Source: Blastomyces gilchristii SLH14081
Lineage: Eukaryota > Ascomycota > Eurotiomycetes > Onygenales > Ajellomycetaceae
Direction: 5' to 3'
Length of the DNA: 64,000 nt
Assembly (NCBI RefSeq): GCF_000003855.2
Contig: NW_003101679.1
Span: forward strand, 2,393,379 to 2,457,378
Of the stretch, positions 2,147 through 63,300 are shown piece by piece (positions within the stretch are counted from its first letter, which is position 1; each line of letters starts with the position of its first letter). The notes beneath the pieces are model-generated. The model saw only the letters and a list, made by a program, of their open reading frames with translations. It ran no database searches and was not told the origin of the DNA. The translations under genes were made by a program, and so were the position numbers.

Positions 2147-2176
2147 TACTAAAAGAGAGTAGAGATAGAGTAGAAT

Positions 2177-3781: not shown

Positions 3782-4770
3782 TATTCTTACTCAATGAAAA
3801 GTTGATCAGACTAATTCAATTGAGATATTTATTAAACTCTTTTACATTGAAAAGTTGGTCAGACTGTTTCAATTAAGAGGTTTCTAAGTCTGTTTTCAAT
3901 TGAAAAGTTGATCAGACTATTTCAAAAGAAGAATAACAGACTTTTATGTATAAAATATCTGATTTTTTTCACACTAGTTCAGTAACTAGGTTAGATTTTT
4001 GAAGAGAATCTAATAAACTTAAATTGATTTTTAAGATAAATCAATAAAATCTTTATAATCTCTTTCTTGGAATACAGTGAGGAAAAGTATGATATCAATT
4101 GATAGTAAATCAGATAATGTGACAGTTTTTGAGAGAAAAACTGACAAAAAATAAATCAATTTTTTGCAGAGAAATTGATTAAAACTATTCAATTTTATTC
4201 TAAATTATTCAATTCTTCTCACACAATAAGTGTGCAACTCAAATCAGTTAATAAAGAGTGTAAAAAAGAATTAAGTATTAATGAAAGCTCTTCAGTCACT
4301 GAAAAAGTAATTCTTACTTAAAAGAATATGAAATTATGACAGAAAATAACTCTGTTTTTAATTCTTTGTAAGAATATTGTGTAAAACCCAGAGAAAAACA
4401 TCTTACTTTTTCAAGAGAAGTAAAAAACTATTTCTGAAATCTTTTTTTTTTGCATTAACTGCTGTAGAAGAATGAGATAGAAACTACTAAGATATGCACT
4501 ACTGTATATTCTCTATCAAGACTTTCTCTCTTCAGAGTCTTGATATTATAGAGAATATAAGTCTGTTTCTACATAATAATGTAAATATTGTCAGTGAGAT
4601 GTAGAGAAACTGATTATTTATATCTCAAAATAGAAGACTTTGTCAATGATTATATCAATATAGAGTTAATTCTCAAATTCAATAGAAATCTAGTGTTGCT
4701 GTTCTCAATTCCTTGCAGAATCTATTGAATATTGAGGTATTAAAACTAGATTTAATATATCTCACTGTGC
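3782..4770 (-). other. LINE 5' untranslated region, AT-rich part
   Basis: No ORF. The stretch matches base for base, with scattered transitions, the sequences upstream of ORF1 at 43900-44808 and 45961-46891. It contains a short repeated motif near ORF1 in which 'agtctgatcaacttttca'-like units recur (3790-3920 on this copy). It is strongly depleted of CC, GG and CG. Confidence 0.7.
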
Positions 4771-5445
4771 AGGGATCAAAGGCTCAGTCAGACCTTGGGG
4801 TATACTGATTTTATAGTTGTCATGTCTGCCGATTATGTATCGAGTACAGTTGCTGAGGTATCTTTTTGTACTTTTCTGTCGGGGATGGGCCAGATTGAGA
4901 GGGGTGGTACGAGGGTGAGACTTGGCGTTGATGTCTAGATACACTGAAGACAGACCGCGGAGGTTGCACTTCAGAAGTGGCCGTTGGTTATATGCTTGAT
5001 ATTATCGCCGAGGTATCTTTTTGTATTTTTCTGCCGGGGATGGGCCAGATTAGGAAGGGCGGTACGAGGGTGGGACTTGGCGTTGTTGTTTTGGAACATC
5101 AAAGATGGACAGGGTTTTCGCGGAGGTCGCTCCTCAGATATCTCCACAACTACAGATCGGGGATCTTCCAAAATCGAGAAGATTGGTGCATATGGCTAGG
5201 TCTCTTCACCTTACAATTTGTATGGCACTTTGGCCCGGGGTTGTGGTGTGGTAGGGGTGAACGGGGGATAATCCCACACGGGAGTTTCGAACAACGTCTA
5301 GTTCACGTTTGGCTGGATATCTCCACCACCACACGGGGTATGCGGTCGGCGATGGGGTCCAAATGCTCGTATGATCGAGGGCTTTTCGATGGATCTATCG
5401 GCGGGTTCTTATTCGAAAAATCGAGCGAGTTCGTGATGGGGCGGT
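4771..5445 (-). repeat. GC-rich LINE 5' unit with internal duplication; antisense ORF on + strand
   Basis: A block of near-normal GC content at the 5' end of the LINE, with counterparts at 45265-45955 (well preserved) and 43224-43900 (mutated). It contains a degenerate internal tandem duplication: the segments at about 4774-4940 and 4971-5100 both encode, on the minus strand, a peptide with the shared core AKSHPRT and LAHPRQK. The plus strand has a 159-codon ORF (4977-5456), and the equivalent strand of the 45265 copy has a 177-codon ORF (45228-45761, minus). The roughly 11 amino-acid differences in the shared 150 residues show no sign of being conservative, so I do not call a protein. A promoter role is plausible for a LINE 5' end but unproven. 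Confidence 0.6.
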
Positions 5446-7211: not shown

Positions 7212-9783
7212 CTATGGGCATCGCCGTCCACCGCCAGTTCGAACTATGCCGTCCGTTAATGCTTTCCCAAGCTTTTTCCGACATTCTGGGCAGTACCACT
7301 TCGCCGTCCGACTTGGAACTTCTGAGAGGCCGACACAGTCGAGATGGAACCATTCTTTGTCGCACTGAGAAAAATAAATTAAATCACGTTAGTTTTGTTT
7401 GTTTAATTAGTACTGTGTGTTAGTAAAAGCATTGGCAAAAAAAGAGGGGATAAAACACGATTGGAAGGACGCCTAATTGTGAAGTGCAAGATACAAAACA
7501 TGTTACAATCATGAAAATGGTATAAAAGTAAGGAATAAAAAAGCAGAAGCAGTACACTTAAAGAGGACATTTACGATGGCCACTCACATCATTATCCTCG
7601 CAGCAGATCATGGTACCGAAACTCACGTCTCCACAGAGACAGTATCTTGGTTCGTTCGGGTCGATTTCTTCCAGGAAGCCATCCTCATCCATCCGTATAT
7701 CCTCGGTCCTGGGAGCCATGTTCTGATCCTTCCTTTTCTTCACTGGTTTGGCCTTGCGACGGCCTACACTTACGGCAGCGCCGCCATCCTGGCCAGATGT
7801 TACGGGTCCTGGCGCAGGGCGCCTGCTACGGCGACCAGCTGCGGTTGTACCGGCGGGTTGATCCGCTCCAGGTGTGGCCTTGGCAACTGCTGGGGTTGCG
7901 CTCTTCCTTCGAGGTCGATCTCGGCCAATCGATTCTCCAGAGGCTCCAGTGGCGGAACGTGGTCGAGAGCCTGCTCGAGTAGCAGGCGGTGTGGGGGTGG
8001 GACGGATCCTGGCAGCCACGGAACCTGTTGTTCGGCGCAATTTCGCCGGAGATAAAGCACGCGGTGACCGTTTCGAGATAGCGGATGGGCCAACAGAAGG
8101 AGAAGTTCGAGGGCCTATACCCATCGCTGCACTTTCCACTAAAAATTCATCTCCAGCTGTGTTCACGGCACTTGTAGAAGCAGATTTGCTAAGCTTGCGC
8201 TTTTTAGTTGACGGCCTGACTGTAGCTAAGGAGATAGGAGCGGGAGATTCAACATCTTGTGATGATTCTAAAACGGCCGTCTCCTCAAATTTTCTCTTCT
8301 TCATGGTCTGCTTTGATACCTTTGGCCTATCTTTCACTGCAGGACCGTTAGCTTTGAAAGGTGTACCTAAAAGTCCAGATTGAACGTTATTGTAAAGATT
8401 CTGCTCAGCAGGGCTTGGAAACAAGCTTTTAAATGTAGACCCGATGTCCCCGAGTCGTCTCGCCGCCATCTCCGCTTCGGCCGCAGCGAGAGCTGCCTGT
8501 TCCCGTGCAAGGTTTTCGCGTTTCAGCTTCTTCGCCTCGTTAAGTTTCATACCTCGGTTACTTAGTTTGGTTTCCTCCACCCCCGAAACATCCGCGTTTA
8601 CTTCGCTTTTTCGGACAAGTTTTCCTGGAACATAATTGTTCGTTATGTCGTCGCAGTCTACAAACTCAGCGCCGGTTGCTTCAGCGTTCAGCTTGGCTGC
8701 TCTGTAGCCTTCCCATCCTCGACCACGCAGCGCAAGTTCTCGGTGGATCATAATTTCACTAGGTTGCCAAATATTGTTCTTCTTCATCTTCTTTCGAAGC
8801 TTGGTCATTTCCCATTCAGTCAAACGGAGCCATGGGAAATGTTCGCTTCCGATTTTTGCATCGTCCGGGGGAGGTTTTAGCATTGCCAAAGCATTGCTAG
8901 TAGAGGTATCGATTTGACTTATCTCCGCATTCCCACTAGAATCTGACGGCTGAGAGATGTGACGGCTGATCACATGTTTCTGCTTTTTCGACTTTCTTTT
9001 GTTCTTGGATGTGTCGAGCGACTGGGCGGCTTCGGCAGCATGCGACGAGCTGGGCCCAAGATCATCGTCTGATTGCTCCGTGCTGGCAATAGGTGAGTCC
9101 GGATTTCGCAGAACATGGTTAGGACCTCGGGTCGCTACGCCCTGTGGCTTTCCATTTTGTGGGCGTGTTTCATTAACGGTCGAACCAGCCACAACTTGTC
9201 GGGTTCCATCGATATGCAAAGTTATCCTTTGTGTAGAACGTGTCTCGCCAGCTTTACGGCCACTTCTTTCTCGTTTTGTTTCAAGTGATGATTCGGCTAG
9301 AGGAGGGGCAGACTCGTCGCGGGAAATTGCAGTACAAGTCTTTAGTAGTGCATTCAACTTGGATTTGATGCTCCCAAGGCGGTCAAAGTGGCGATCAACC
9401 ACATCGTAGAGGCGACATGCTTCCGCGTAGGCAGACTCTCGCGCATTCATCACGCGCCCCAATTGTTCTGATATTTGTCTTCGTAGAACGACGGGGTCAG
9501 GCCGCGAATCTGCTGGCAGATTGGGTAGTTGTCCATAGATCTTTGTAAGCTCGTGTACGGAGGCTGCAGCGTCCAGGTAGGTCTCATCCAGGCCACGAAT
9601 CAGGGTCAGGGAACGAACGAGGTCTGAAGGGAGGTATTCGGTATAGTCGATAAAATCGGTCACGGTAGCCTGCGCATCCGGATCTGAGGGCCCCTCCATG
9701 ATGCCACGCTCATCCGAATCGTCAGATATCATGGAGATCACGAGGCGCTCGAGGGAAAAGGTGAAAAGTTTCCGCTCGGTCAA
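7212..9783 (-). CDS. ING-family PHD-finger chromatin protein, join(7212..7364,7588..9783)
   Basis: A 782-residue ING (inhibitor of growth) homologue. Family members read trimethylated H3K4 as subunits of nuclear histone acetyltransferase or deacetylase complexes. Residues about 40-165 form the N-terminal helical ING domain; 170-700 are low-complexity with basic nuclear-localisation-like clusters (KNKRKSKKQK, KKRKFEE, KKRKLSKS, KPVKKRK). The C-terminal PHD finger is complete only after splicing a 223-nt intron (7365-7587; GTGAGT...CTCAG). Zn ligands are C715, C717, C728, C733, H739, C742, C757 and C760, with exactly the ING spacing (CxC-x10-C-x4-C-x5-H-x2-C-x14-C-x2-C). The aromatic-cage positions Y714, M725 and W737 are kept. 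The unspliced frame stops nine codons into the intron. The 5'-most ATG was used; ATGs at codons 18 and 29 are alternatives. It is longer than yeast Yng1, Yng2 and Pho23, mainly in the disordered middle, and which of these it corresponds to is not settled. Codon use and GC are unlike the surroundings, as expected for an unmutated host gene. Confidence 0.9.
7365..7587 (-). other. Intron of the ING gene
   Basis: On the minus strand exon 1 ends ...GAT AAT GAT at 7588, followed by GTGAGT. Exon 2 begins at 7364 after ...TTTTCTCAG. The phase is 0 and the junction restores the PHD spacing Asp-Asn-Asp|Cys-Asp-Lys. The intron contains in-frame stops and its AT content is higher than that of the exons. 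Confidence 0.88.
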
Positions 9784-30152: not shown

Positions 30153-32726
30153 TATTATTATTATTATTCTTCAATTATAGATGTATGCAGTCAGAGACTA
30201 TGACATCTACCTGAGAACTTTAGTTCTCAGGGTTTTTTCTATGTCTGTAAAGTTAACTATTATACATTCATCAATTTCAGATATGCAAAATCAGAAAATT
30301 CCAGCCCAGAATACAAAAACTGTTTACAAATTGCAGTGTTTTAACATCTTTTGATACTTTGAAACCATTTGACAATATCATGACAAAAGAAAAGAGAAAA
30401 AGAACACAGTCTCAAAGATAGACACATTAAACAGATAGATAGAAAGAAATTGAAAGAAAAAGATAAAGAAAAAGATAAAGTAAAGAGAGACTATAACAAA
30501 ACAAATTATTAAAAGAGAGTGTATAGCTGTTTTAACAGACTATATCTGATTGATTTCCTCCTCTTCATATTCAGATAATTCTGAATTTAGCCATTTTCTT
30601 GTAGCTGCTTGAGTTTCTGATAGAAAGTCTATTAAGTATTTAATTCCTGTCTCAGTTGAGAATAAGAATCTCATATTTAATTGATTTAGATCATACTTCT
30701 CTTTCAATCTGGCTCTGAGACTATTGTATAATGCACAGTGCATTACAATATGCTCAGGATTCTCATTTGTATTGCAGAATGAGCATTCTATTGAGTCAAA
30801 TCTATCATCAAATCTTTGTATATAAGATTTGAAATAGCCATGTCCTAGTTTCAGCTGTATTATAGATGAGAATATTTTCTTTTTACATTTAATTGAACAA
30901 GATTTCCACTTGGGTTTTGTTTCAAATCTTGAATAATGTATACTCTTCTTTTGTTTCTGCCAGCTTTCATTCCACTTGTCTAAACAAGATTCTTTTATTT
31001 TTCTCCTTATAAAAGACCAGGACACAATTTTTTGAATAGATCTGCTTAATTCTGCACCCTTTTTTGCAGCTGAATCAGCCAATTCATTGCCATGAATATT
31101 CATATGAGCAGGAACCCAGTGCAGATGAATTATCAGCTTTGATATTCTTCTCTTTTGAATTTTCAAAACAGAGTTTAAGATCAGTTCAAGATTCATTTGA
31201 TCATTATGAATCTGACTATTTCTAAGTCTTTTTAAAGCAGCTTGACTATCAGAGAATATTCATGCCTCTTTCAAACAATTTCCTCTTTTATGAGATTTTA
31301 TTTCAATGAGTTTGAAAGCTTTCACTATTGCAAATAGTTCAGTATCAAAGACTTCACATTCAGAGCCTAGATTCCAGAAATCTGAGATAAAATTAATATT
31401 ATCTTCAGTATAAGCAATGCCTGCGCCTAATCTATTCAAGTTCTCATTTTTTGAGCCATCTGAATAAATCAGAATAGAGTCTTTTATATTGATTGTAGAA
31501 ATTCTCTTTAAATGCTGTTCATATTCTTTCCCTTTTGATAGTTCACTTATTTGTAAGTCTATAAGAGATTCAAGCTTTTCTCTCCAGGGAGATAGCTTCT
31601 CATGATCAACTTTTTCAACATTTAAAGAGGAAAATTGATTTTTAATCAGAGAGCATAGTCTGTACAGTTGAGAAGGCATTTTCTTTGAAGAATTATTTTC
31701 ATTCCAATCAAGAAATCTATTCCAATCCAGTTCATTTCCAGAGTTAATTGGTGGAAATGAAGAAGAGACTCTTTCTCTGATTATATGATTTGAGCTCATC
31801 TTTACAACTCTCAGAGCATAGTTCATACAGGCCTTTTCAAATCTAATAGCAGGAGGAGGAATTGAAGCTTCAATTTCCATTGCTTTAATAGGAGATGATT
31901 TGAATGCTTCCAGAATTCTTCTCAAGGCTCTGTTTTGCAGACTTTGAAAGAGTTCAGTGAAATTCCCTTGATTATTCCACCAAACTTGGACTCCATAATC
32001 AGCTACTGATGTAATACAGGCTATATATAACTGTCTCATAGCCTGGAAGGATAGACCCCTCTCTGTATTTGATAGTCTGATTATGTTGTTCAATAGTCTT
32101 TCTGCCTTGACAGTTCTTTGTTGAATGTGATATTTAAAATTCAACTTGGAGTTTAACCATACTCCTAACCATTTGACATTTACACTGGGTTTAATCTCTC
32201 TATTCAAAAGAGTTAGAGATAGTTCTTTCTCATTGAATCTAGGAAAGAAATGAATTAACTCAGTTTTATTCATATCAAATTGAATTTGATTGATATCTGC
32301 TCTAACAAAGATTTCCTTTGCAGCTTCTTCAATTACTTTCAAATTCTCTTTGATAGTTTTTGAGCTGTAGACTAGACCAATATCATCCACATAACTTGGA
32401 GATCGCACTATTCTCATATTTCTATTTTTGAATAGATATGCAGTGTATATTGCAAATAAAATGGGTGAGATTGGAGATCCCTGTGGTACTCCTATTTTTA
32501 TCTCAGTCTTGTCTTGTTTCATTCCATCAAAGAAGAGTTGTATAATTCTTTTAGACATAAAACAGTTAACCCATTTTATTAGAGAAAGTGGCAGTTTTAA
32601 TATCTTCAATGTCTGAATTAACTTTGACTTTGAAACATGATCAAATGCTCCTTTTATATCAATAAAAACTGCAGTTGAGACCAGACCCTCATGCTTTGCT
32701 ATTTGAATATCATGAACAACTGAGAG
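30153..32726 (-). mobile_element. LINE copy A, 5'-truncated, recent
   Basis: 2,574-bp 5'-truncated LINE, read right to left, ending in a (TAA)n tail (30153-30168 on the plus strand as TATTATT...). Flanked by perfect 16-bp duplications. It lies inside gypsy-2. It keeps CC, GG and CG words that copies B and C have lost, so it escaped most hypermutation. The 3' untranslated region (30170-30540) includes a perfect 10-bp stem at 30210-30231 (CCTGAGAACT / AGTTCTCAGG). Confidence 0.92.
30540..32726 (-). pseudogene. LINE ORF2 C-terminal part: RT, RNase H and CCHC knuckle; one stop
   Basis: About 727 codons open except for a single TGA (31260-31262), where the context (A-stop-IFSDSQAAL) suggests an original tryptophan codon; downstream reading resumes in frame to 30540. 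Motifs: RT block A AVFIDIKGAFDHVSK, block B GVPQGSPISPILFAIY, catalytic SYVDDIGLVYSS, then the thumb region; RNase H with LIYSDGSKN (catalytic Asp) and the later SDSQAAL and HIHGNELADSAAK (His/Asp) motifs; and a C-terminal CSFCNTNENPEHIVMHC knuckle. The endonuclease and ORF1 are lost by 5' truncation. Not functional as an autonomous element, but it is the best template for the family in this window. Confidence 0.9.
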
Positions 32727-32742
32727 AATCATATCAGATCTT

Positions 32743-43223: not shown

Positions 43224-45264
43224 GCGCTCCACCACGAACTCGCTCAATTTTTTGAATAAGAACCCGCCGATAGATCCATTGAAAAGCCCTCGATCATACG
43301 AGCATCTTGACCCCATCGCCGACCGCATACCCCGTGTGGTGGTGGAGTTATCCAGCCAAATGTGAACCAGATGTTGTTTGAAACTCCTGTGTGGGATTAT
43401 CCCTCATTCTCCCCTATCATATCACAACCCCGGGCCAAATTGTCATACAAATTGTAAGGTGAAGAGACCTAGTCATATGCATCAATATTCTTGATTTTGA
43501 AAGATCTCTGATCTGTAATTGGGAAGATATCTGAGAAGTGATCTCTGTGAAAACCCTGTTCATCTTTCATGTTTCAAAATATTAACATCAAGTCTCATTC
43601 TCATACCGCCCTTCTCGATCTGGCCCATCTCTGACAGAAAAATATAAAAAGATATCTCAGTGATAATATTAAGTATATAATCAACAGACACTTCTGAAGT
43701 GTAATCTCTGCAGTCTGTCTTCAGTGTATCTAGATATTAACATCAAGTCTTACTCTCATACTACCTCTCTGAATCTCACTTATCTCTGATAGAAGAATAC
43801 AAAAAGATATCTCAATAACAGTATTCAATACATAATCAGCAGACAATAAGTTAATAGAACAAGTTAACAGCATATCAACAACTATAAATTCAGTATATCT
43901 CAAGATCTGACTGAGTCTTTGATTTCTGCACAGTGAGATATATTAAATCTAGTTTTAATATCTCAATATTCAATAGATTCTGCAAGAGATTGAGAACAGC
44001 AATACTAGATTTCTATTAAATTTAAGAATTAACTCTGTATTAATATAATCATTGACAAAGTCTTTTATTTTAAGATATAAATAATCAGTTTCTCTACATT
44101 CTGCTGACAATATTTATATTATTATATAGAAACAGACTTATATTCTCTATAATATCAAGACTCTGAAGAGAGAAAGTCTTGATAGAGAGTATATAGTAGT
44201 GTATATATTAGCAGTTTCTATCTCATTCTTCTGTAGTAGTTAAAGCAAAAAAAAGATCTTAGAAATAGTTTTTTACTTCTCTTGAAAAAGTAAGATGTTT
44301 TTCTCTGAGTTTTATACAATATTCTTATAAAGAATTAAAAACAGAGTTATTTTCTGTTATAATTTCATATTCTTTTAAACAAGAATTACTTTTTCAGTAG
44401 CTGAAGAGCTTTCATTAATACTTAATTCTTTTTAACACTCTTTATTAACTGATTCAAGTTACACACTTGTTGTGTGAGAAGAATTGAATGATTTAGAATA
44501 AAATTGAATAGTTTTAATCAATTTCTCTGTAAAAAATTGATTTATTTTTTGTCAGTTTTTCTCTCAAAAACTGTCATATTATCTGATTTAATATTAATTG
44601 ATATTATACTTTTTCTCACTGTACTCTAAGAAAGAGATTGTAAAGATTTTATTGATTTATATTAAAAATCAATTTTAGTTTATTAGATTCTCTTCAAAAA
44701 TCTAACCTAGTTTCTGAACTAGTGTGAAAAAAATCAGGTGTTTTATATATAAAAGTCTTTTATTCTTCTTTTGAAACAGTCTGATCAACTTTTCATTGAG
44801 TAAGAATAATGAGTTCAAAAGTACACTCAGTTGATGTGAAAAAAGATGCTTTCTCAAATGCTATTTCTGAGATTGAAATTCTGAAGAGAAGAAAGAAAGA
44901 AGAAATAGAGAAATAATAAGTTCTTGAAATACAGCAACTGAAAAAAGTAAGTAAAATTCTTGAAAAGCAGTGTCTGAGTGAGATGAATGAAGAACTTCTA
45001 TTAATTCTTCATACTCAGGCTAGACAACTACAGAAAGTAATCAAGTTCAAACATGGAATTTCAAACACAGTTCTAAAAACTTTGAAAATTCCTCATACAA
45101 TCACTGACTCTTCAGTTTACTCTTCTTTCTTTTCTACTTCTTCTTCTTCTTCTTCTTTAAATCAGAAGAAAATATATGCTCAAGCAGCTGAATCTGCTGT
45201 CTCTAAATCTACTGTCTCAAAATCTGCTCAAAATCCTGAAAAAACTGAGAAGAATACTTCACAC
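43224..45264 (+). mobile_element. Truncated LINE 5' end (copy B')
   Basis: GC-rich 5' unit (43224-43900, partly mutated), AT-rich leader (43900-44808) and the first 456 bases of ORF1 (44809-45264), cut where the next LINE 5' unit starts. Same orientation as copy B, directly upstream of it. Its missing remainder is not found beyond copy B's tail. Confidence 0.8.
44809..45264 (+). pseudogene. Truncated LINE ORF1 of copy B'
   Basis: Starts ATGAGTTCAAAAGTACACTC as in the other copies; stops occur in the first third. From 44983 it is open and runs without interruption into the next unit to 45405, giving a chimeric 140-codon frame (Ser-rich ORF1 part, then MNSLDFLNKNPP...). This fusion is a by-product of the junction. 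Confidence 0.7.
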
Positions 45265-46891
45265 CGCTTCACCATGAACTCGCTCGATTTTTTGAATAAG
45301 AACCCGCCGATAGATCCATTGAAAAGCCCTCGATCATACGAGCATTTTGACCCCATCGCCGACCGCATACCCCGTGTGGTGGTGGAGATATCCAGCCAAA
45401 CGTGAACTAGACGTTGTTCGAAACTCCCGTGTGGGATTATCCCCCGTTCACCCCTACCACACCACAACCCCGGGCCAAAGTGCCATACAAATTGTAAGGT
45501 GAAGAGACATAGCCATATGCGCCAATCTTCTTGATTTTGGAAGATCCCTGATCTGTAATTGTGGAGATATCCGAGAAGTGACCTCCGCGAAAACCCTGTC
45601 CACCTTTGATGTTTCAAAACATCAACGCCAAGTCCCACCCTCGTACCGCCCTCCCCAATCTGGCCCATCCCCGGCAGAAAAATACAAAAAGATACCTCGG
45701 TGATAATATCAAGCACATAATCAACAGACACTTCTGAAGTGCAACCTCCACAGTCTGTCATCAGTGTATCTAGACTTCAACACCAAGTCTCACCCTTGTA
45801 CTACCCCTCTCAATCTGGCCCATCCCCGGCAGAATAATACAAAAAGATACCTCAGCAACAGCATTTGATACATAATCAGTGAACAATGAGTCAACAGCAC
45901 ATCAATAACTATAAAATCAGTATATCTCAAGATCTGACTGAGCCTTGGATCCCTGCACAGTGAGATATATTAAATCTAGTTTTAATATCTCAATATTCAA
46001 TAGATTCTGTAAGAGATTGAGAACAGTAACACTAAATTTCTATTGAATTTGAGAATTAACTCTATATTGATATAATCATTGACAAAGTCTTCTATTTTGA
46101 GATATAAATAACCAGTTCCTCTACATCTCACTGACAATATTTATATTATTATATAGAAACAGACTTATATTCTCTATAATATCAAGACTCTGAAGAGAGA
46201 AAGTCTTGATAGAGAGTATACAGTAGTGTATATCTTAGCAGTTTCTATCTCATTCTTCTGCAGCAGTTAATGCAAAAAAAAAAAGATCTTAGAAATAGTT
46301 TTTTACTTCTCTTAAAAAAGTAAGATGTTTTTCTCTGAGTTTTATATAATATTCTTATAAAGAATTAAAAACAGAGCTGTTTTCTGTTATAATTTTATAT
46401 TCTTTTAAGTAAGAATTACTTTTTCAGTAGCTGAAGAGCTTTCATTAATACTTAATTCTTTTTTACACTCTTTATTAACTGATTTGAGTTGCGCACTTGT
46501 TGTGTGAGAAGAATTGAATGATTTAGAATAAAATTGAATAGTTTTAATGAATTTCTCTGCAAAAAATTGATTTATTTTTTATTGATTTTTCTCTCAAAAA
46601 CTGTTATATCATCTGATTCATTATCAATTGATATCATACTCTTTCTCACTATATCTTAAGAAAGAGATTGTAAAGATTTTATTGATTTATCTCAAAAATT
46701 AATTTTAGTTTATTGAATTCTCTTCAAAAATCTAACCTAGTTACTGAACTAGTGTGAAAAAAATCAGGTGTTTTATACACAAAAGTCTTTTATTCTTCTT
46801 TTGAAACAGTCTGACCAACTTTTCAATTGAAAACAGACTTAGAAATATCTCAATTGAAACAGTCTGATCAACTTTTCATTAAGTGAGAATA

Positions 46892-48493
46892 ATGAGTTCA
46901 AAAATACACTCAGTTGATGTGAAAAAAGATGCTTTCTCAAATACTATTCCTGAGATTGAAATTCTGAAGAGAAGAAAGAAAGAAGAAATAGAGAAACAAC
47001 AAGTTCTTGAAATACAGAAACTTGAAAAAGCAAGCAAGATTCTTGAAAAGCAGTGTCTGAGTGAGATGAATGAAGAAGTTCTGTTAATTCTTCATACTTA
47101 GACTAGACAACTACAGGAGATGATCAAGTTCAAACTTGAAATCTCAAACACAGTTTAAAAAACATTGAAAATTCCTAGTACAATCACTGACTCTTCATCT
47201 TGCTCTTCTTCTGTTTTTTCTACTTCTTCTTCTTCTTTGAATCAGAAGAAAACATATGCTCAAGCAGCTGAATCTGCCATCTCTAAACCTGCTGTGTCAA
47301 AATCTGCTCAAAATCCTGAGAAAACTGAGAAGAATACTGCTCATATCTCTATTCATAGAAAAGTGAAAAAGGAAATGTAAAAAGAGAAAAACTTTCAAAT
47401 CTTCAGAAATAGAAGACTTATTCTCAAAGTCTTAAATCAGAATATTCTGTAAAGAAACAAGCTAAACTCAAATCTCATTTTCAGAATCAGAAATGAAATT
47501 AATCAGCAGTTCTTTTCTCAGTTGATGACTGATATTGAAGTTCAAAAACCAGTTATAGCTTCAATTGAGTCATTATTCTTTGAAAACTTTATCATTCTGA
47601 CTACAATGCCTGAATTCAGTGCTGAATTCCTTATTCAGAATAAGAATCTCTGAAAGTCAGCAGTAGAATCTTTGCTAAACACAATAATTCTATCTGAAAG
47701 AGATGAAAAGTGAGACAAATTCATTCTTTATAATATTCCAGTTGAAATTTTTGACTGTGAAGAAGAAATACTACTTCTCAAAAATGAATTAGAAGAATAC
47801 AACTCTATTCAACTGAGAAAGAAGCCTGTATAACTAAATTCAATTGAGTTCAGATAAAGCAGGAGAAATGCCTCTGTTCTAGTATATATAAAAACACTTG
47901 AACAGTCAAAGATCTCTAAAGTAAGAGTAGCAGATTTGAAAATGAGAGTTCATAAATACAAAGACTCAAGAATGAATCTCAAAGTTCAAACACAGTGTTC
48001 AAACTGTCAAAGATATGAACACTTTGCAATCTCATATTTTAGAGACTCAAAATGTGTATTCTGTGCCAGAGATCACAAAACTAGTGAGCATAAATGTGAA
48101 ACATGCTCAAAAAGAGATAAAATATATCAACACACTCTGCTTAAGTGCTCTAATTGCAAAGAAAAACATGCATCTAGCTCAAAAGAAGGTATGTTTGCTT
48201 CTAGAACTCAAAAGAACTGGAGAAAAGATGAAGCTCAAAGTCAATCTAGAACTGAAGAGAAGAGTCAAGTCAGTAGACTGATAACTACAAGCTTAAAAAG
48301 AAGAAACTCTTAACTATTTAAATCTTCAAACTTCAATTCTTCAGTTAAATGTAAACAGAATTTGAATCCTCAAACTCCTGTTAAGATTAGAGAATTGAGA
48401 AATGACTCTGGTGATAAACTAGATATAATGCAAGCAGTTGAGATCCCTACTTTTCAAAATAGTTATAATCTACTATCTGATGATAGTGACTAG
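46892..48493 (+). pseudogene. LINE ORF1 (gag-like) of copy B
   Basis: 534 codons, starts and ends as in copy C. The N-terminal coiled-coil-like part (EIEILKRRKKEEIEKQQ) is open for 70 codons; then come a Ser-rich part and SIHRKVKKEM before a TAA. Zinc-knuckle region at about 47995-48190 in the 125-codon piece 47936-48313: CSNCQRYEHF, KCVFCARDHKTSEHKC and CSNCKEKHA. One expected Cys has become Tyr. Confidence 0.75.
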
Positions 48494-48522
48494 ATCCTAC
48501 TCTATCTCTACTCTCTTTTAGT

Positions 48523-51500
48523 ATGAATATACAACAAAAATAACAAAAAAAGTTTAAAAACTCTTTAAGAATCACATTTATTCAAAATAATATGAATAGA
48601 AACTTAAATTATATTTATTCTTGTCTTCAAATTGCATTTGAATAAAAAGTTGATTTTATACTACTTCAGGAACTGAATTTTGATGCTGAGCAAAATTACA
48701 TCATTTCTCATTCAAGCTACTACTGCTTTCTATCTCAAAAGTCTGAGATAAAGTCAAGAGTAGTGATCTATGAAAGAAAGAGATCAAGATATCAATTTAA
48801 TCTAAGATTTGATATCATGTCTGACTCTGATATTCTGGTGAGTGATATTATAGATAAAGAAAATGAGTTTGATACTATACATCTCATAAATATCTATAAT
48901 GAAAAGTCATTGAAGAAAAATAACAATATCTGAACAATTGATAGAGGATTTCTGAACATAACTTTATCAAGAAACTCTATAATTGCAGAAGATTTCAATG
49001 CACATCATCCCTGATGAAATTCAGAATGCAAGAGAGCAGTGAGAGCTGATAATCTGATTGAATAAACCTTTGAGCATTCAATAGATTTGATTAATAAGTC
49101 TGATCAACAAACATTCTTTAGAAAAGACATGAAATAGAAATCTATTATAGATCTAATCTTCATGTCACAAAATCTAATAAAAAGAAGACTTGTAAACTGA
49201 TTTATTGATTCAAATGAGATATCAGAATCAGATCATGAGATTATTCAATTTAATATTGAACTGAGTGAAAAATAAATGAGTGAAAATTCTCTTCTCTCTA
49301 ATCAGTTTGACTTTGAAAAAGCTGATTGAAAAGCAGTTGAAGAAAGTATAAAACTATTATAATCTGAAAAGCAGAGTGAGCTATATTAAAACTCTGATCA
49401 AGATATCTCAAATGAAAGACTTAAGAATAGAGTGATACTCATTACATCTATTATTCTAATAAGTGTTAGAAAAAATATTTTAAAGAGAAAGTCTTCTGAG
49501 TATTTCAAATTTTAATGAAATGAAAATATCACATCTAAAAGAAAACAATTAGCTACTACTAGAAGAGATTGAAAGAATAATGTAATATCTGATAAAGAGT
49601 TTAAAGCTGTCAGAAATAAATATTTTTCAGATATTAAAAGAGCTAAAACAGACTGCTGAAATAAATTTCTTGAAGAAGTATAAGATAAAAAAGTTTTTAA
49701 AGCTTTTAACTATACTAAAATAAAAAGTATAGCAAAACTTTCAGCTCTAGAATATGAGTTTCAGAATGAATTATATACAGTAAATTCTTTTGAGAAAAAA
49801 TGTTAAGCTTTTATAAGAATTCTCTTTCAAAACTCATGAGATTCAGACTCAGAGAAACAGAATATATCACTTTACAACTATATTAATGAAAATGACTAAG
49901 AATGATCTGAGCTTATATAAGATGAGTTAGAGTCAGCTATCTTCTCAAGTTCAGTTAAAACTGCTGCAGAGCCTGATTCAATCAATCACTTGATTATTCA
50001 AAATATATATTCCTACTTAAAGAATGAATATTTTCAGCTCTTTTTCAATCTCTTGAAAAATGAATATCATTCTGAATGTGAAAGAGAAATAACTGGAGTA
50101 TTTCTGACAAAATCTAATAGAAAAACTTCAATTTTTAAGTCATATAGAGTAATATCTCTATTGAACTGTCTAGAAAAGGTTTTAGAAAAGATAATAGATA
50201 CTTAACTATCTTTTACAAGCTCTATGAATAATTCTCTTTTATTCAGTGAATAAATGAGAGATAGAAAGCAATATTCTGTAATTAACACTATTCTCTCAGT
50301 TATTCATAATATTCAAATAGCAAAGTATGAAGATCTAGTCTCAACTGCAGTTTTTATTAATATAAAAGAAGCATTTGATTATGTTTCAAAGTCAAAGTTA
50401 ATTCAGACTTTGAAGATGTTAAAACTGTCACTTTCTCTAATAAAATGAGTTAACTATTTTATATCTAAAAGAATCATATAAATATTCTTTGATGAAATGA
50501 AATAAGATAAGACTGTGATAAAAATAGAAGTACTGTAAGAATCTTTAATCTCATCTATTTTATTTACAATATACACTGCATATCTATTCAAGAATAGAGA
50601 TATGAAAATAGTGTGATCTGCAAGTTATATGAATGATATTAATCTAGTCTACAGCTCAAAAACAATCAGAGAGAATTAAAAAGTGATTGAAAAAGTAGTA
50701 AAGAAAATCTTTATTAGAGTAGATATTAATTAAATTCAATTTAATATGAATAAAACTGAGTTAATTCATTTCTTTTCTAGATTCAATGAGAAAGAACTAT
50801 GACTAACTCTTTTAAATAGAGAGATTAAACTCAGTTTAAATGTAAAATAATTAGAAGTATGATTAAACTTCAAGTTGAATTTTAAATATCTTATTCAATA
50901 AAGAACTATTAAGACAGAAAGACTATTGAATAATATAATCAGACTATTAAAAACAGATAGAGATCTATTCTTCCAGGCTATGAGATAGTTATATATAGTC
51001 TGTATTATCTCAGTAGCTGATTATGAAGGTCAAGTTTGATGAAATAATCAAGAAAATTTCACTCAACTTTTTCAAAGTCTGTAAAATAGAGATTTGAGAA
51101 GAATTCTGGAAGCATTTAAATTATCTTCTATTAAAGCAATGAAGATTGAAGCTTCAATTTCATCTCCTGCTATTAGATTTTAAAAGAACTGTATGAACTA
51201 TGCTCTGAGAGTTATAAAGATAAGCTTAAATCATATAATCAGAGAAAGAGTCTCTTCATCATTTTCATCAATTAACTCTGAAAATGAACTAGATTAAAAT
51301 AGATTTCTTGATTGAAATGAAAATAATTCTTCAAAGAAAATGTCTTCTCAACTATACAGACTATACTCACTGATTAAAGATCAATTTTCTTCTTTAAATA
51401 TTGAAAAAGTTAATCATGAGAAGATATCTCTCTGGAGAGAAAAGCTTGATTCTCTTATAGACTTACAAATAAGTGAACTATCTAAAGAGAAATAATATAA

Positions 51501-52479
51501 ACACTATTGGAAGAGAATTTCTACAATCAATATAGAAGACTCTATTCTGATTTATTCAGATAACTTAAAAAATAAGAATTTGAATAGATTAGACGCAGAC
51601 ATTGCTTATACTGAAGATAAGATTAATTTTATTGTAGATTTCTGAAATCTAGACAGTGAATCTGAAGTCTTTGATACTGAACTATTTATAATAGTGAAAG
51701 CTTTTAAACTCATTGAAATAAAATCTTATAAAAGAGAAAATAGTTTAAAAGAGATATGAATATTCTCTAACAGTCAAGCTGTCTTAAAAAGACTTAGAAA
51801 TAGTCAGATTCATAATAATCAAATGAAGCTTGAACTGATTTTAAACTCTGTTTTGAAAATTTCAAAGAGAAGAATATTAAAGCTGATAATTAATCTACAC
51901 TGAGTTCCTGCTTATATGAACATTCATGACAATGAATTGGCTGATTCAACTGTAAAAAGAGGTTCAGAATTAAGCAGATCTATTCAAAAAATTGTGTCCT
52001 GGTCTTTTATAAAGAGAAAGATAAAAGAATCTTGTTTAGATAAGTGAAATGAAAGCTGACAGAAATAAAAGAAGAGTATACATTATTCAAGATTTGAAAT
52101 AAAACTCAAGTGAAAATCTTGTTTAATCAAATGTAAAAAGAAAATATTTTCATCTATAATACAGCTGAAACTAGAACATGACTATTTCAAATCTTATATA
52201 CAAAGATTTGATGATAGATTTGATTCAATAGAATGCTCATTCTGCAATGTAAATGAGAATCCAGAGTATATTATAATGCACTGTGCATTATACAATAGTC
52301 TCAGAGTCAGTTTGAAAGAGAAGTATAATCTAAATCAATTCAATATGAGATTCTTATTCTTATCTGAGACAGGAATTAAATACTTAATAGACTTTCTATT
52401 AGAAACTCAAGCAGCTACAAGAAAATGGCTAAATTCACAAATATCTGAATATGAAGAGGAGGAAATTGATCAGATATAG
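48523..52479 (+). pseudogene. LINE ORF2 (endonuclease, RT, RNase H) of copy B
   Basis: 1,319 codons with many stops. The endonuclease covers 48600-49270 (IIAEDFNAHH near 48985, SDHEI near 49230). RT covers about 50050-51100 (AVFINIKEAFDYVSK where copy A has FIDIKGAFDHVSK, and SYMNDINLVYSS for YVDD). RNase H lies around 51540-52000 (IYSDNLKN). The terminal knuckle CSFCNVNENP is near 52240. Catalytic D-to-N changes and G-to-E/D/S changes are what G-to-A mutation yields. Confidence 0.8.
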
Positions 52480-52768
52480 TCTGTTAAAACAGCTATATAC
52501 TATCTTTTAATAATTTGTTTTGTTACAGTCTCTCTTTACTTTACTTTTCCTTTCTATTCTTTTCTATCTATCTATTTAATGTGTCTATCTTTAAGACTGT
52601 GTTCTCTTTTCTTTTGTCACGATATTGTCAAATGGTTTCAAAGTATCAGAAGATGTTAAAATAGTGTAATTTGTAAACAGTTTTTGTATTCTGAGCTGGT
52701 ATTTTCTGATTTTGCATATCTGAAATTGGTGAGTGTATAATAGTTAACTTTATAGATATAGGAAAAAC

Positions 52769-52791
52769 CCTGAGAACTAAAAGTTCTCAGG
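52769..52791 (+). other. LINE 3'-end stem-loop
   Basis: CCTGAGAACT, a 3-base A loop and AGTTCTCAGG form a perfect 10-bp stem 58 bp before the end of the (TAA)n tail. It is conserved in copy A (30210-30231) and in degraded form in the SINE at 56935-58006. 3' stem-loops are recognised by RT in several LINE families; that role here is inferred. Confidence 0.7.
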
Positions 52792-55141
52792 TAGATGTCA
52801 TAGTCTCTGACTGCATACATCTATAATTGAAGAATAATAATAATAATAACAGCTAATTCTGAATAAAAGAAGATTATCTGTGAGTTACTCTCTAGTCAGA
52901 CTGCAGTGAACTACTCAGATTTAATTGTATATATTTTTATAATAAAGATTTTTCATTTTCTTAATATTCTTAAATCTGAAGAGCTGTTCAGGCTGATGTT
53001 AATCAGAGTATGAATAATTGAATATTAAAAACATGAACTGTCTCATATGTATTCATTAATCTGACTAGAGAACTCTAAGCAGTTTTTACAGTCTGAGATG
53101 ATTGATAAGATTATATCTGCAGAGCTGCTAAGCACTGCTGAGAATACACACAGATTGAGTGAATTGATTTATAAATTTATAATTCATGATTTATATAATA
53201 CTGGCAGGGTGAGCCTCTGCTACAAGAATGACAGATGTATGAAATATTTTCTTAAAACCTTTCAGAGTGCTACAGCTGTTGAAGAGAATGACTATTCTCT
53301 GTATAGACAGCAGTATGATTCATCTATCTTCTTCAAATATACTGTTAACAACAGTGAGATTATAATTGACAACTGCTGAGTTGTTTCATACAATCTCTAT
53401 CTTATTCATATATATAAAGCTTATATAAATGTTGAGATCTGCACCTTCATTGAAGTTATTAAATATATTAATAAATACATTTACAAGGGCTCAGATCACA
53501 CTACTCTTCATATCATTAGCTTTAATAATGAGATTGATATTCAACTGTATGAACATTATATCAGCTCAACTGAGGCTGTATAATATATATTTATATTTCA
53601 TATACATCAGGAGTTTTCATCTGTTGAGATATTATCTATTCATCTATCAGACTGTCAGATGATTTACTTCTCTGAATCTGAATATGAAGATTATAAATGT
53701 ATGACTGATTGTTTAATAAATAATATATCTAAGTTTATAGCATTCTTTGTCTACAACTATTCACATTCAGATGCTTAGTATTTCTATCAAGAATTTCTCT
53801 GTCATTTTGTTTGAGACAAACGTAACTAAAGATGAAAGAGCTGTGTGAAGAAGAGACTAGTTAATTGTCTGTCTCATCTCAGTTCATATAATGATGAGAA
53901 ATTCTTTTTACAGCTACTTCTTATTAATATATGTGATTCTCTGAGCTTTGAGACTCTGTGAATAATATATGATGTTCACTGCTCTATATTTCATATAGTA
54001 TGTCAGATGCTTGATCTTCTGTATAATAATAATGAGTGAATCATTACATTTGAATCTGCTGTTGTATTTATAACTGCTCACTGTATATAATCAGTATTTA
54101 TCACTGTATTAATTTATAACAATATTGCAGATTCATCTGCTCTCTGAACACATTTCTGCCATACTCTCTATGATAATCTTTCACATTAACTGTATCAGAT
54201 GAATTCAGACTGTATTAATAAGAGTTTTTCAGAAGATTTATATTATGACTATAGTCTGTTTCTTATTCAACAGCTGCTGCATGAGTTTGACAAGGCTCTT
54301 ACAGACTTCAATCTGCCTGTATACAGCTCTGTATAAGATAGTCTTATTAAAAACTGACTACTTTTTAAGAAGCAGAACTATGATCTTATAGAGAAAATTA
54401 TTACTGCAGATACTCTGCAGATGCAGTTGAATAATAATTAATATTATGTATATGATTTAATTCTGACTGCAATAGAATTACAGTCATCTCACTATTTTAT
54501 ACAGAGTTGAGATAACACTGATAAAACATTTTCTTTACAGAGCTCTGTATATCTGTCTATATATAGATGAAAAAGCAGTTCTTTGTGTAACTTTCTCTAG
54601 AATTGCATCTGTTCTTTTATTATATGATAGAATAGCTCACTCATATTATATCATTCTCATTGAATTGAATGCAGATTCTGTGTCAAAGATGACTATTTAC
54701 AGTGAACTGAGCTATCTGCTACAGGTTGTGAATTTAATTATTTAAGATAAGGCCTTCATGCAGTATCACTATTATATAAAGATTGTTAATCTTCTTCTTC
54801 AAAATTTATATTCATTAGATAGGCTTTTTGATGATATCTCTATTATATTTAATAATGATTTTGCACAGACTCTGTCTATTATATGATATAATAGCTGTGC
54901 TGCAGTTATTACAGCTTGTCTGCAATATTCATATATATAACAGCAATTAACTGTACTGTGCTTAATAAGAAATATAAGACTCACTGTGAATAATGGTAAT
55001 ATGATATTCATGAATTAACTTAGTTCAATATTATATAATCTGAACTGTATTAACTGTATTAATCTTTCATCATATATTTATCAGATTACTAACATCAGTG
55101 TGCTATGTAAGAGAGTGTTTTCTACAGCTAAATTTAGAACT

Positions 55142-56922: not shown

Positions 56923-56934
56923 TAATCTATAAAC
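56923..56934. repeat. 12-bp target duplication of SINE-1 (left)
   Basis: TAATCTATAAAC, repeated exactly at 58007-58018; the two flanking bases also match save one G/A difference. Confidence 0.88.
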
Positions 56935-58006
56935 GGCCCGGTGGCGTAGTGGTTAACTACACTATCATGGAGCCTCAATTAGCGGCCTTCCCCCCGGGGA
57001 ATGAATGCTAAGAGGGGGCAGGTTTGAACCCTGTGAGAGTCATCTTAACCACAGCTTTCACTGTTAAGTCATAAAACAGTACCAGGGGCCCCTGAGTGCA
57101 CTATAGTGAATCATTGTCAAGCTTAAGATGTCTACTCTGAGAGTTTCCAGACACTAATTCTCACTGATCTTAGAGTTAACAGTCCTTCAGGCACTTCAAG
57201 TTAGATCAGTACTAGAGTGATTGAGATCTAGAGTGCCCGCAGAATAGTGAATCATTATCAAGCTTAACTGGCCAGATCTCATCTTTCTCATACTAGACAC
57301 TCACTTCTGAGTAATTGACATTTAAAAACTATCTGATTAGAATACTTCAGGCCTAGTAAGAACCTAGATGAGATGAGATCTAGACACTCTTAATAGATGA
57401 TTAGTGCAAGCAAGATCATGACAGTCAATTGATAGACTGAAATACTGAGATTGACAGCTGAAAGATTAGAGACTTAACTAGAATTGAGTAGCTCTGATAT
57501 TATTCTTAGTGAGAATCTCACTTATAGATAAGCTAGTTACAGAAGCTAGCTGAGCAGCAGCTCTTTAGAGAGAATGATAATCTCTGAAGCAGGCCTGAGA
57601 GAACAGAGACAGCAGTCAATTATATAGAATGCTAAAATATATATATAGCTTAAGATGTAAACTGCAGAGATCTTATTCTGTAGATCTCTCTTTACTATAC
57701 TTATTTCTTTCTGTTCTTTTTTATCTATCTACTTAATATATCTATCTTTAAGACTATGTTCTCTTTTTCTTTATCACAATATTTTTAAATGATTTCAAAG
57801 TATCAGAAGATGTTGAAATACTGTAATTTATAAACAGTTTTTGTATTCTGAGCTGGAATTTTCTGATTTTGTATATCTGAAATTGATAAATGTATAATAG
57901 TTGACTCTGTAGATATAGGAAAAACTCTGAGATCTAAAGGTTCTTAGGTAGATATCATAGTCTGTGACTGCATACATTTATAATTGAAGAATAATAATAA
58001 TAAATA
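56935..58006 (+). mobile_element. SINE-1: 1.07-kb tRNA-derived SINE with LINE-derived 3' end
   Basis: Head: box A TGGCGTAGTGG (56942-56952) matches TRGYNNANNGG exactly, and box B GGTTTGAACCC (57021-57031) matches GGTTCGANYCC save C to T. Between them a TTCCCCCC/GGGGAA hairpin suggests a long-variable-arm tRNA ancestor or an insert. Body (57050-57680): no homology noticed; the motif ATAGTGAATCATTRTCAAGC occurs at about 57102 and 57246. Tail (about 57680-58006): co-linear with the last 320 bp of LINE copy B (52527-52849), including the stem-loop in degraded form and the (TAA)n terminus. Flanked by 12-bp duplications in copia-3. This is the layout of a SINE mobilised by a partner LINE. Confidence 0.85.
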
Positions 58007-58522
58007 TAATCTATAAACTATCACTCGAAGTCTTCTTCATTCTCAAATCTTTTAAAAATGCAATAATAATTAATTATATCAATCAGACTCTTATTTTCTC
58101 ATTTAAAAAGACATCTGTACAGTAATAACTGTAAAAATCAAGAAATACATGTAAAATTCATCGATTCACTGTATTATTATTATTATTTAATTATTCTTTT
58201 CTAATCTCTTTTAAATCAATTCTTTCAATAAATTCTTCAAATGCAGGCTTAATCAGTGACTTGATGAGACTGTCAGCTATATTCACTGTAGAATTAACAT
58301 GTTGCATCATAATTTTCTCTTTTTCAATCAAATTGCAGAGTATATAATATCTAATCTCAATGTGATATAATCTTCATGTTAAGAACTTCTCTTTCACTAG
58401 ATTGATTGCTTCCTTATTATTCACTTATAGAAATAAGTATATTTTCACTTTTTCATCATTCATCAACTCAGTATTATATAACATATTATTCAATTATATT
58501 ATCTTATAAGCTGTCTTACTAG

Positions 58523-61680: not shown

Positions 61681-62272
61681 AATTATTAATAATTGAAATT
61701 AATTTTAAGTTTTCAAAAATTATTGTACAAGTTGTAATCAATGTCAGAAATAATATATAAATATATATATTTAACTATCATGATTCATAAATCACTATAA
61801 TATATAAGTATCAATATTTTTTCAACATTAATATTTATAATATTAATATATTTTTAATGATATTATCTGATAATATAATTTGATAACACTCTCTTTCACA
61901 ATATTAATATATTTTAAGAAATATGATAGAGATTAATCAAGATTCTGTATTTACTTTTATATATTAATAATATTCAATCTGAGTTAGTACTAAAATTATA
62001 ACTAAGCTAAGAAAGAAGATTATTTTCTCTTATATTAATTCTTCTTATACATATCAGTGATTAATTATTAAATATAAATTATTATCTTTCTTAAATTATT
62101 ATTATATCTTCTGAATTCACTTCTTTCACTTCTTTCACTTCTATTGAAGATTTATAGAGTCTTTAACAAATTACTGTGAATCACAAAGTCTATATATTTA
62201 CAATTCAACACAGAATGCTCTCTTTATATTATGATGATAATCACTTTATTCTTCATATCTGATTTCAGGTCA
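61681..62272. other. AT-rich stretch, nothing recognised
   Basis: Very low GC; alternating AT runs near 61750-61900 and three 'cttctttca'-like repeats near 62116-62140. No gene evidence. Confidence 0.5.
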
Positions 62273-62832
62273 NNNNNNNNNNNNNNNNNNNNNNNNNNNN
62301 NNNNNNNNNNNNNNNNNNNNNNNNNNNNNNNNNNNNNNNNNNNNNNNNNNNNNNNNNNNNNNNNNNNNNNNNNNNNNNNNNNNNNNNNNNNNNNNNNNNN
62401 NNNNNNNNNNNNNNNNNNNNNNNNNNNNNNNNNNNNNNNNNNNNNNNNNNNNNNNNNNNNNNNNNNNNNNNNNNNNNNNNNNNNNNNNNNNNNNNNNNNN
62501 NNNNNNNNNNNNNNNNNNNNNNNNNNNNNNNNNNNNNNNNNNNNNNNNNNNNNNNNNNNNNNNNNNNNNNNNNNNNNNNNNNNNNNNNNNNNNNNNNNNN
62601 NNNNNNNNNNNNNNNNNNNNNNNNNNNNNNNNNNNNNNNNNNNNNNNNNNNNNNNNNNNNNNNNNNNNNNNNNNNNNNNNNNNNNNNNNNNNNNNNNNNN
62701 NNNNNNNNNNNNNNNNNNNNNNNNNNNNNNNNNNNNNNNNNNNNNNNNNNNNNNNNNNNNNNNNNNNNNNNNNNNNNNNNNNNNNNNNNNNNNNNNNNNN
62801 NNNNNNNNNNNNNNNNNNNNNNNNNNNNNNNN
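62273..62832. other. Assembly gap (560 N)
   Basis: Unknown bases; content and true length cannot be judged. ORFs spanning it are meaningless. Confidence 1.
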
Positions 62833-63300
62833 CTGAACCTTATTAGAGAGATATAATGAATTTGAATCATATTAGTAGTCATCTGAGAATTATATACAGG
62901 AGATTTATACTGTGATTATACATAACTATTGAGATATTAGTCTCAGTCTTCTTACAATTACAACTGATAATACTGTGAATAACTACACTATAATGAAGAG
63001 TTTGAAGCAAAAATTGACTTTGCATTTCTGAAATGATAAATAAGGTCATATTCTCTGTATTACTTATGTGATTTAACTTGTGATGTAAATACTGATAAAG
63101 AATCTTAATATTGAGATAAAGAATAATGAGATGACTGATTCTTGAGATAAGAATGAGATGAAAGTAGTTACTCAAGTAACTTTTGTATTCACTTTGTAAA
63201 AGATAATATTTTTTGATAATACTTTTTAGTATTGCTTTATGATACTACTTTTTAATAATACTACTGTTAATTTTGAATAGATTGACTAATAATTTAAATA
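62833..63300. other. AT-rich stretch, nothing recognised
   Basis: A 98-codon minus-strand ORF (62879-63175) has no recognisable domain and a composition typical of chance openings in this AT-rich sequence. The words 'gataatactttttagta' and similar recur near 63200-63260. Confidence 0.4.

What the first reader, a model, noticed from the sequence alone, without database searches (positions are those of the whole stretch)
56935..58006. SINE with a tRNA-type promoter head and a 3' end shared with the resident LINE
The 1,072-bp insertion has a near-perfect box A and box B, a 12-bp target duplication and a final 320 bp co-linear with the LINE 3' end including stem-loop and (TAA)n. This is the architecture of SINEs that borrow a specific LINE's RT by sharing its 3' tail, known from vertebrates and plants. 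It is unusually long (1.07 kb), with an unexplained 600-bp central body. I am not aware of a described fungal case of this form but could not search.
Basis: partly seen in the sequence, partly recalled or inferred. Interest (0 to 1): 0.88.

Follow-up and report, generated by a model that had tools for sequence, protein, structure and literature searches.

The report
SINE-like RNA gluing on LINE tails
A fungal genome holds roughly two hundred copies of a 750-letter RNA-like sequence with a tRNA-type start signal, and the copies appear to have been pasted in after the enzyme of a larger jumping gene joined that sequence to one of several different jumping-gene tails, which lets a long-standing idea about how SINEs are born be tested directly.

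Summary
56935-58006 is a retroposed element with 12-bp target duplications, box A and box B, and a LINE 3' end. It is one member of a dispersed family: 205 first-look candidates, 92 copies read. 84 of 89 complete copies have target duplications (swapped flanks: 1 of 266). Substitutions are 96% transitions, RIP-like.

The interpretation needs changing. This is not a SINE with one inherited LINE tail. The first ~745 bp (head plus body) has almost no RIP-proof variation. The LINE parts differ in source: 35 of 89 are RIP-proof identical to one of 45 sampled LINE tails, and a single origin of the tails is rejected (AU p = 2e-8). They start in 11 LINE position classes, while the body ends at the same place (..GTAG or ..GTAGAT). 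A 12-copy body sublineage occurs in six different body-LINE joins.

Best explanation: the LINE reverse transcriptase starts on LINE RNA, then jumps to the 3' end of a separate ~745-nt RNA with a Pol III-type promoter, many times over. MINE (WEIRD-MGL) of Magnaporthe and vertebrate U6-LINE chimeras are the closest known cases. Promoter use, the free RNA and the jump are inferred, not shown. I rate it a new variant of a known kind.

The parts
56923..56934 (+). 5' target-site duplication TAATCTATAAAC
56935..57044 (+). head with Pol III type-2 promoter motifs
   Evidence: the head of a less-mutated copy (L128) folds with z -3.97; no tRNA call by ARAGORN or Rfam
56942..56952 (+). box A TGGCGTAGTGG
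57021..57031 (+). box B GGTTTGAACCC (consensus of 30 copies GGTTCGAACCC)
57045..57685 (+). central body of unknown origin; ends ..GTAGAT in this copy (body sublineage X)
   Evidence: longest open frame in five less-mutated copies 43-47 aa
57686..58006 (+). LINE-derived 3' part; nearest sampled LINE tail is L168 (one RIP-proof difference)
57927..57947 (+). hairpin (9 bp in the consensus, one pair broken in this copy) shared with LINE 3' ends
   Evidence: no compensatory changes
57990..58006 (+). (TAA)n-like 3' terminus
58007..58018 (+). 3' target-site duplication
50290..52846 (+). partner LINE copy, 3' part (strongly mutated family)
30155..32729 (-). partner LINE copy of a young subfamily; frames with RT (31260-32732) and RNase H (30540-31196, 24.1 bits against Pfam's cut-off 25.8)

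Best explanation
The element is a chimeric retroposon made of two RNAs. One is a ~745-nt RNA without a long reading frame, with internal box A and box B and a fixed 3' end (..GTAG, or ..GTAGAT in sublineage X). The other is the 3' end of a resident LINE with EN, RT and RNase H. The LINE RT nicks the target, starts copying at the (TAA)n end of LINE RNA, and after about 255-357 nt jumps to the 3' end of the other RNA and copies it to its 5' end. The insertion is closed with a 10-19 bp target duplication. This has happened many times with different LINE subfamilies. Some tail classes may also have multiplied as whole units, as a classical SINE would. Shown: family, target duplications, common body end, several LINE donors and breakpoints. 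Inferred: Pol III transcription, the free ~745-nt RNA, and the RT jump itself.
For: (1) Transversion (RIP-proof) difference is 0.0028 per site between bodies and 0.0175 between tails, although transition difference is higher in bodies (0.114 vs 0.073). (2) RIP-proof distance from each of 89 tails to the nearest of 45 LINE tails: 0 in 35, 1 in 24, 2 in 23, 3 in 5, 4 and 5 in one each; tail-to-tail distances inside the family average 5.1 and reach 18 (overlapping span only, first 3 and last 18 columns left out). (3) One clade for the family's tails is rejected: delta lnL 74.7, AU p 2.1e-8, KH and SH p 0.0003, with 45 LINE tails; delta 49.0, AU p 0.0085 with the first 41. (4) 71 of 89 copies use one LINE breakpoint class and 18 use ten others, two of these upstream of the main one, at the same body end. 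(5) Body sublineage X (12 copies) has its own 3' end ..AT in 11 of 12, against 1 of the other 77, and occurs with LINE groups A, C and F at the main site and in three other breakpoint classes; its members share body transitions (0 of 2000 permutations as high). (6) Target duplications in 84 of 89 copies, against 1 of 266 with flanks swapped between copies. (7) 25 combinations of body type, breakpoint class and nearest LINE group, 18 with an unambiguous group.
Against: No tail-less source locus was seen; 92 of 205 candidates were read. Junctions do not keep an oligo-U end, which a primary Pol III transcript would have. 36 of 89 copies share the main breakpoint and LINE group A, and some share tail indels not seen in the 45 LINE tails, so part of the family may be unit-amplified. 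Most junctions begin with CT on the LINE side, and several breakpoint classes lie a few bases apart in or beside a CTAT repeat, so slippage could account for some of them; clearly separate are the upstream ones, the main one, the CTAT repeat and the TCTATCTTTAAGACTG stretch. One X copy (L101) is assigned to its LINE group only weakly (distance 5). Depletion of T4+ runs in the body, expected of a Pol III unit, is not significant against dinucleotide shuffles (P 0.17-0.19), though base shuffles give 0.03; 135 of 2532 window stretches of that length also lack T4. LINE tails were chosen by similarity, not at random.
Confidence: 0.72

Rival explanations
1. Classical SINE: the tail was captured once, and whole 1.07-kb RNAs have been retrotransposed since.
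For: Constant 5' end, target duplications, one breakpoint class in 71 of 89 copies; tail classes with private indels, such as the class of 13 copies grouped by hand as A4.
Against: One clade of tails rejected; 35 of 89 tails identical in RIP-proof characters to a LINE tail while tails differ from each other by up to 18; ten other LINE breakpoint classes, two upstream of the main one.
Confidence: 0.08
2. SINE with an inherited tail that is overwritten by gene conversion or homologous template exchange with LINE copies.
For: About 2000 LINE candidates in the first look give many partners (2452, 1991); tails and LINEs are 88-93% alike.
Against: By eye, in the first 49 copies no tail switched type between columns 166/172 and 262, with one partial case (L016) and the copies deleted there uninformative; later copies were not checked for this. 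The left edge is always the body end, and 18 of 89 join non-homologous LINE positions, which homologous exchange would not produce.
Confidence: 0.12
3. One-off chimera of a 5'-truncated LINE with an unrelated sequence.
For: Would fit a single locus.
Against: 92 loci read with the same head and body; 84 of the 89 complete ones have a target duplication.
Confidence: 0.01
4. DNA-level artefact or segmental duplication of one locus.
For: The genome is repeat-rich.
Against: The 86 target duplications called, two of them weak, are 86 different sequences; swapped flanks match in 1 of 266.
Confidence: 0.01

Closest known systems
MINE (WEIRD-MGL chimeras) of Magnaporthe grisea (PMC2104539; passages and one section seen)
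   Same: Full-length copy of a ~1.1-kb non-coding RNA fused to a 5'-truncated LINE, 10-20 bp direct repeats, recurrent breakpoints, no solo copy of the RNA found.
   Different: Here the RNA part has box A and box B, the LINE part is short (about 255-357 bp) with one dominant breakpoint and several LINE subfamilies as donors, and there are 205 candidates against 31 MINEs. The GCC*A/U switch motif given for MINE does not fit the main site here.
U6-LINE chimeras of vertebrates (PMC4476161; passages seen)
   Same: Small RNA joined at its 3' end to LINE 3' parts by template switching, with target duplications; stringent-type LINEs take part.
   Different: No U6 here; the RNA is ~745 nt of unknown origin, and most copies carry one breakpoint class.
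SINEs with LINE tails; in fungi Mg-SINE/MGL (PMC2104539) and AfuSINE2-1a/I-1_AF (PMC5063351, passages)
   Same: Pol III motifs at the 5' end, LINE-like 3' end, target duplications.
   Different: The tail is not inherited as a unit in the family as a whole; the head is not recognised as a tRNA; 1.07 kb long.
HaSE1 and HaSE2 of Helicoverpa (PMC3272025, passages)
   Same: Similar 5' parts joined to different 3' parts; template switching offered as one explanation for HaSE2.
   Different: Two families with two 3' sources, one a mariner-like element; not many LINE variants on one body.

Membership tests
tRNA-derived SINE | internal Pol III promoter boxes A and B near the 5' end | tested here: met
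   (sequence motifs only)
tRNA-derived SINE | head derived from a tRNA | tested here: inconclusive
   No tRNA call; only the T-arm aligns with 20 host tRNAs
tRNA-derived SINE | multi-copy with different target duplications | tested here: met
tRNA-derived SINE | 3' end shared with a partner LINE | tested here: met
tRNA-derived SINE | whole element, tail included, inherited as a unit | tested here: not met
   for the family as a whole; it may hold inside some tail classes
tRNA-derived SINE | transcribed by RNA polymerase III | not testable with these tools
   no expression data
MINE-type chimera | full-length copy of a non-coding RNA joined to a 5'-truncated LINE | tested here: met
   no frame over 47 aa in five less-mutated bodies; that the body is an RNA of its own is inferred
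MINE-type chimera | variable LINE breakpoints with hot spots | tested here: met
   11 pattern classes, 71 of 89 copies in one
MINE-type chimera | homology to WEIRD or MGL | not tested
   I did not have those sequences
U6-LINE chimera | 5' part is U6 or another known small RNA | tested here: not met
   L022; six weak rows, none near its cut-off; L128; no row up to E 1

The most novel reading that the evidence does not exclude
The head+body is a tail-less parasitic (or host) RNA that never brings its own LINE tail to the reverse transcriptase: every insertion is a fresh chimera, and the tail is a record of which LINE subfamily was active at that moment. The family would be a SINE held permanently at the birth stage.
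Probability: 0.4. Interest if true: 0.82.

Novelty: new variant of a known kind. Interest (0 to 1): 0.7.

Why it matters
Template switching from LINE RNA has been proposed as the way tRNA-derived sequences acquire LINE 3' ends and become new SINEs (stated with its sources in PMC4476161, passage). Here one body sequence carries many different LINE tails inside one genome, RIP-like mutation hits transitions but leaves transversions and indels as a cleaner record, and donor LINE subfamilies are still present, one of them with near-identical copies. That makes donor choice, breakpoint choice and the required tail length measurable.

Tried and rejected
Single-copy chimera: rejected. tRNA identity by ARAGORN with introns and by Rfam: nothing. 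Known RNA for the body: no Rfam match above cut-off. Protein in the body: longest stop-to-stop frame 43-47 aa in five less-mutated copies. LINE relic inside the body: a 26-bp stretch at 687-712 of the consensus resembles the co-linear LINE stretch (4 of 1000 shuffles as good), but LINE L059 matches an overlapping 20-bp stretch (699-718) better at another place in the same call, so I do not build on it. Selection against Pol III terminators in the body: no T4+ run in the consensus or in 12 less-mutated copies, 8 runs in 30 copies; not significant against dinucleotide shuffles (P 0.17-0.19), 0.03 against base shuffles. Covariation in the 3' hairpin: none. My first view (notes) that tail class A was specific to the family was wrong: LINE copies L165-L168 carry that tail contiguous with LINE sequence. 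Sharing of body transitions within tail classes, permutation P: A4 0.14, A1 0.047, B 0.0095, D 0.0275, C 0.0475, CTATCTATT class 0.21, pair L053-L087 0.51; body sublineage X 0 of 2000; these classes were picked by hand. Copies left out: of 92 read, L048 (split by an insertion), L098 (body followed by other sequence) and L137 (3' end broken) are not in the 89. LINE locus L074 was dropped because my coordinates missed the tail.

Full report
HOST AND SETTING. The window is G000:C4:2393379-2457378 of a 74.8-Mb genome in 75 contigs. A 922-aa piece of its RPB2 (L079) is 99% identical to an unnamed protein, 96% to Trichophyton and 93% to Aspergillus, so the host is a eurotiomycete fungus, most likely of the Onygenales. 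Two resident LINE copies align over the whole 6.7 kb fetched, a third over 4.9 and 0.76 kb; the 5' end was not determined. tblastn with proteins bearing EN, RT and RNase H domains places these in that order. Pfam finds RVT_1, and RNase H just below its cut-off. Naming the clade Tad1 rests on recall and on that paper.

THE OBSERVATION. It belongs to a dispersed family. Head+body queries from two copies each gave 205 first-look candidates, of which 40 were scored per call. A head-only query gave 172 candidates, 40 scored. I read 92 copies: 30 chosen by similarity to the whole window element, 20 by head only, 22 from the head and head+body lists, and 20 by head+body of a less-mutated copy. 89 are complete at both ends.

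RETROPOSITION. 84 of 89 copies have a target duplication that passes the score; with the two flanks taken from different copies, 1 of 266 pairs passes. The five without or with a weak one are L016 (N flank), L087, L101, L035 and L005. The 86 duplications called are all different, 10-19 bp, 68 of them 12-15 bp. BLAST matches begin at position 1-12 of the element in the copies whose rows were printed.

MUTATION. In 30 aligned copies 2105 of 2197 substitutions are transitions. C>T is lowest before T (0.057) and 0.16-0.19 before A, C and G. I read this as RIP. Transversions and indels are therefore the useful record.

TAILS. In the first 49 copies, RIP-proof variants inside the LINE part recur in LINE copies, while the body has almost none. 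With 70 and then 92 copies the pattern became clear. The sequence up to ..GTAG is constant apart from RIP-like changes; what follows is LINE sequence from different subfamilies, starting at different LINE positions. Examples: L053, L087, L128, L134, L136 and L141 carry the 12-bp duplication seen in the young LINE of window 30155-32729; L018, L028, L091 and L005 carry the tail type of LINEs L073 and L107; L095 and L132 that of L077; L041 and eight others that of L076/L111. L133, L137 and L140 begin 16-19 nt further upstream in the LINE than the main breakpoint. Over 89 copies the LINE part is 255 nt or longer; the longest value, 662, I take to be L101 with its two tails in tandem, and the printed others reach 357.

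TESTS. The nearest-LINE distance is 0 in 35 of 89, 1 in 24, 2 in 23, 3 in 5, and 4 and 5 in one each, against 45 sampled LINE tails. Constraining the 89 tails to one clade costs 74.7 log-likelihood units (AU p 2.1e-8, KH and SH p 0.0003); the earlier set with 41 LINE tails gave 49.0 units and AU p 0.0085. The characters are few (102, of which 42 informative) and the LINE tails were chosen by similarity searches, not at random; the four of group A were found with a family tail as query. On the maximum-likelihood tree the label changes 16 times. Mean transversion difference is 0.0028 per site in bodies and 0.0175 in tails.

BREAKPOINTS. By pattern classes, 71 of 89 use the main LINE position and 18 use ten others. 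Several classes lie a few bases apart in or beside a CTAT repeat and microhomology blurs the exact base, so the number of truly separate sites is smaller; clearly apart are the upstream sites, the main site, the CTAT repeat and the TCTATCTTTAAGACTG stretch. There are 25 combinations of body type, breakpoint class and nearest LINE group, 18 with an unambiguous LINE group. The main position is used with LINE groups A, B, C, D, F and M, so it is a hot spot rather than proof of one event. The dominant class (36 copies, group A, main position) could be many events or unit amplification; I cannot tell.

BODY SUBLINEAGE. Twelve copies, including the window's own, share a transversion at alignment column 387, about 360 bp before the body end. 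Eleven of them end ..AT after GTAG; only one of the other 77 does (L045, where the AT can be LINE sequence). They occur with LINE groups A, C and F at the main site and in three further breakpoint classes (the group C copy, L101, at distance 5), and share body transitions beyond permutation (0 of 2000). So the body and its 3' end travel together while the LINE part changes.

MECHANISM. A fixed acceptor 3' end, variable donor positions, a complete 5' end and target duplications are what LINE RT template switching leaves, as described for U6-LINE chimeras and for MINE. In MINE the authors also report breakpoint hot spots, with a consensus GCC*A/U; the main site here does not fit it, and most LINE parts begin with CT. 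Pol III transcription is inferred from boxes A and B only. The head of a less-mutated copy folds more stably than shuffles (z -3.97), but neither ARAGORN nor Rfam accepts it as a tRNA.

STATUS OF LINE DONORS. The subfamily of window 30155-32729 has 40 of 40 scored places, itself included, at 99-100% identity over 821 bp, so it is young and hardly mutated. For 50290-52846 the 39 best other places are at 92-93%. Among copies with the least mutated bodies, L128 (GC 0.53) and L057 (0.49) carry the young LINE's tail type.

PRIOR REPORTS. LINE/SINE 3' sharing in fungi is described for Mg-SINE and AfuSINE2-1a. In the Onygenales, the Paracoccidioides genome paper reports that no SINE elements were detected in three genomes (PMC3203195, passage), and the word SINE has count 0 in the Blastomyces genome paper (listing). 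Searches listed no report of this family; the library holds open-licence papers only and I did not open most of the listed papers.

Noticed in passing
L124:237-608 (G000:C2:3857836-3858207): A second, shorter SINE-like family (372 bp) with a tRNA-like head that ARAGORN calls (unknown amino acid, 4-nt anticodon) though Rfam does not, and only the last ~50 nt similar to the LINE; 1148 first-look candidates, the 40 scored at 97-100% identity. It sits inside copy L048 with a 15-bp duplication.
   Followed up: partly
window 30155-32729 (-): Young LINE subfamily: 40 of 40 scored places 99-100% identical, unlike the strongly mutated LINE at 50290-52846.
   Followed up: partly
window 1-5445 and 45263-50663: Large inverted repeat (92% identity), with many further nested repeats across the window.
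   Followed up: no
window 7558-9732 (-): 724-aa reading frame with an ING N-terminal domain match, probably an ordinary host gene in the repeat-rich stretch.
   Followed up: no
L098 / L122: Body followed directly by another repeat that starts AGACTGACCGTGTGACC, also seen near window 58520 and, reversed, in L166; probably an insertion into the tail.
   Followed up: partly
L101 / L123: Two LINE tails in tandem after one body, perhaps an insertion into the (TAA)n end or a double event.
   Followed up: no
window about 62273-62832: Self-alignment breaks here and N letters are present in the window; the two ~200-aa frames listed at 62231-62882 overlap this stretch and are probably not genes.
   Followed up: no
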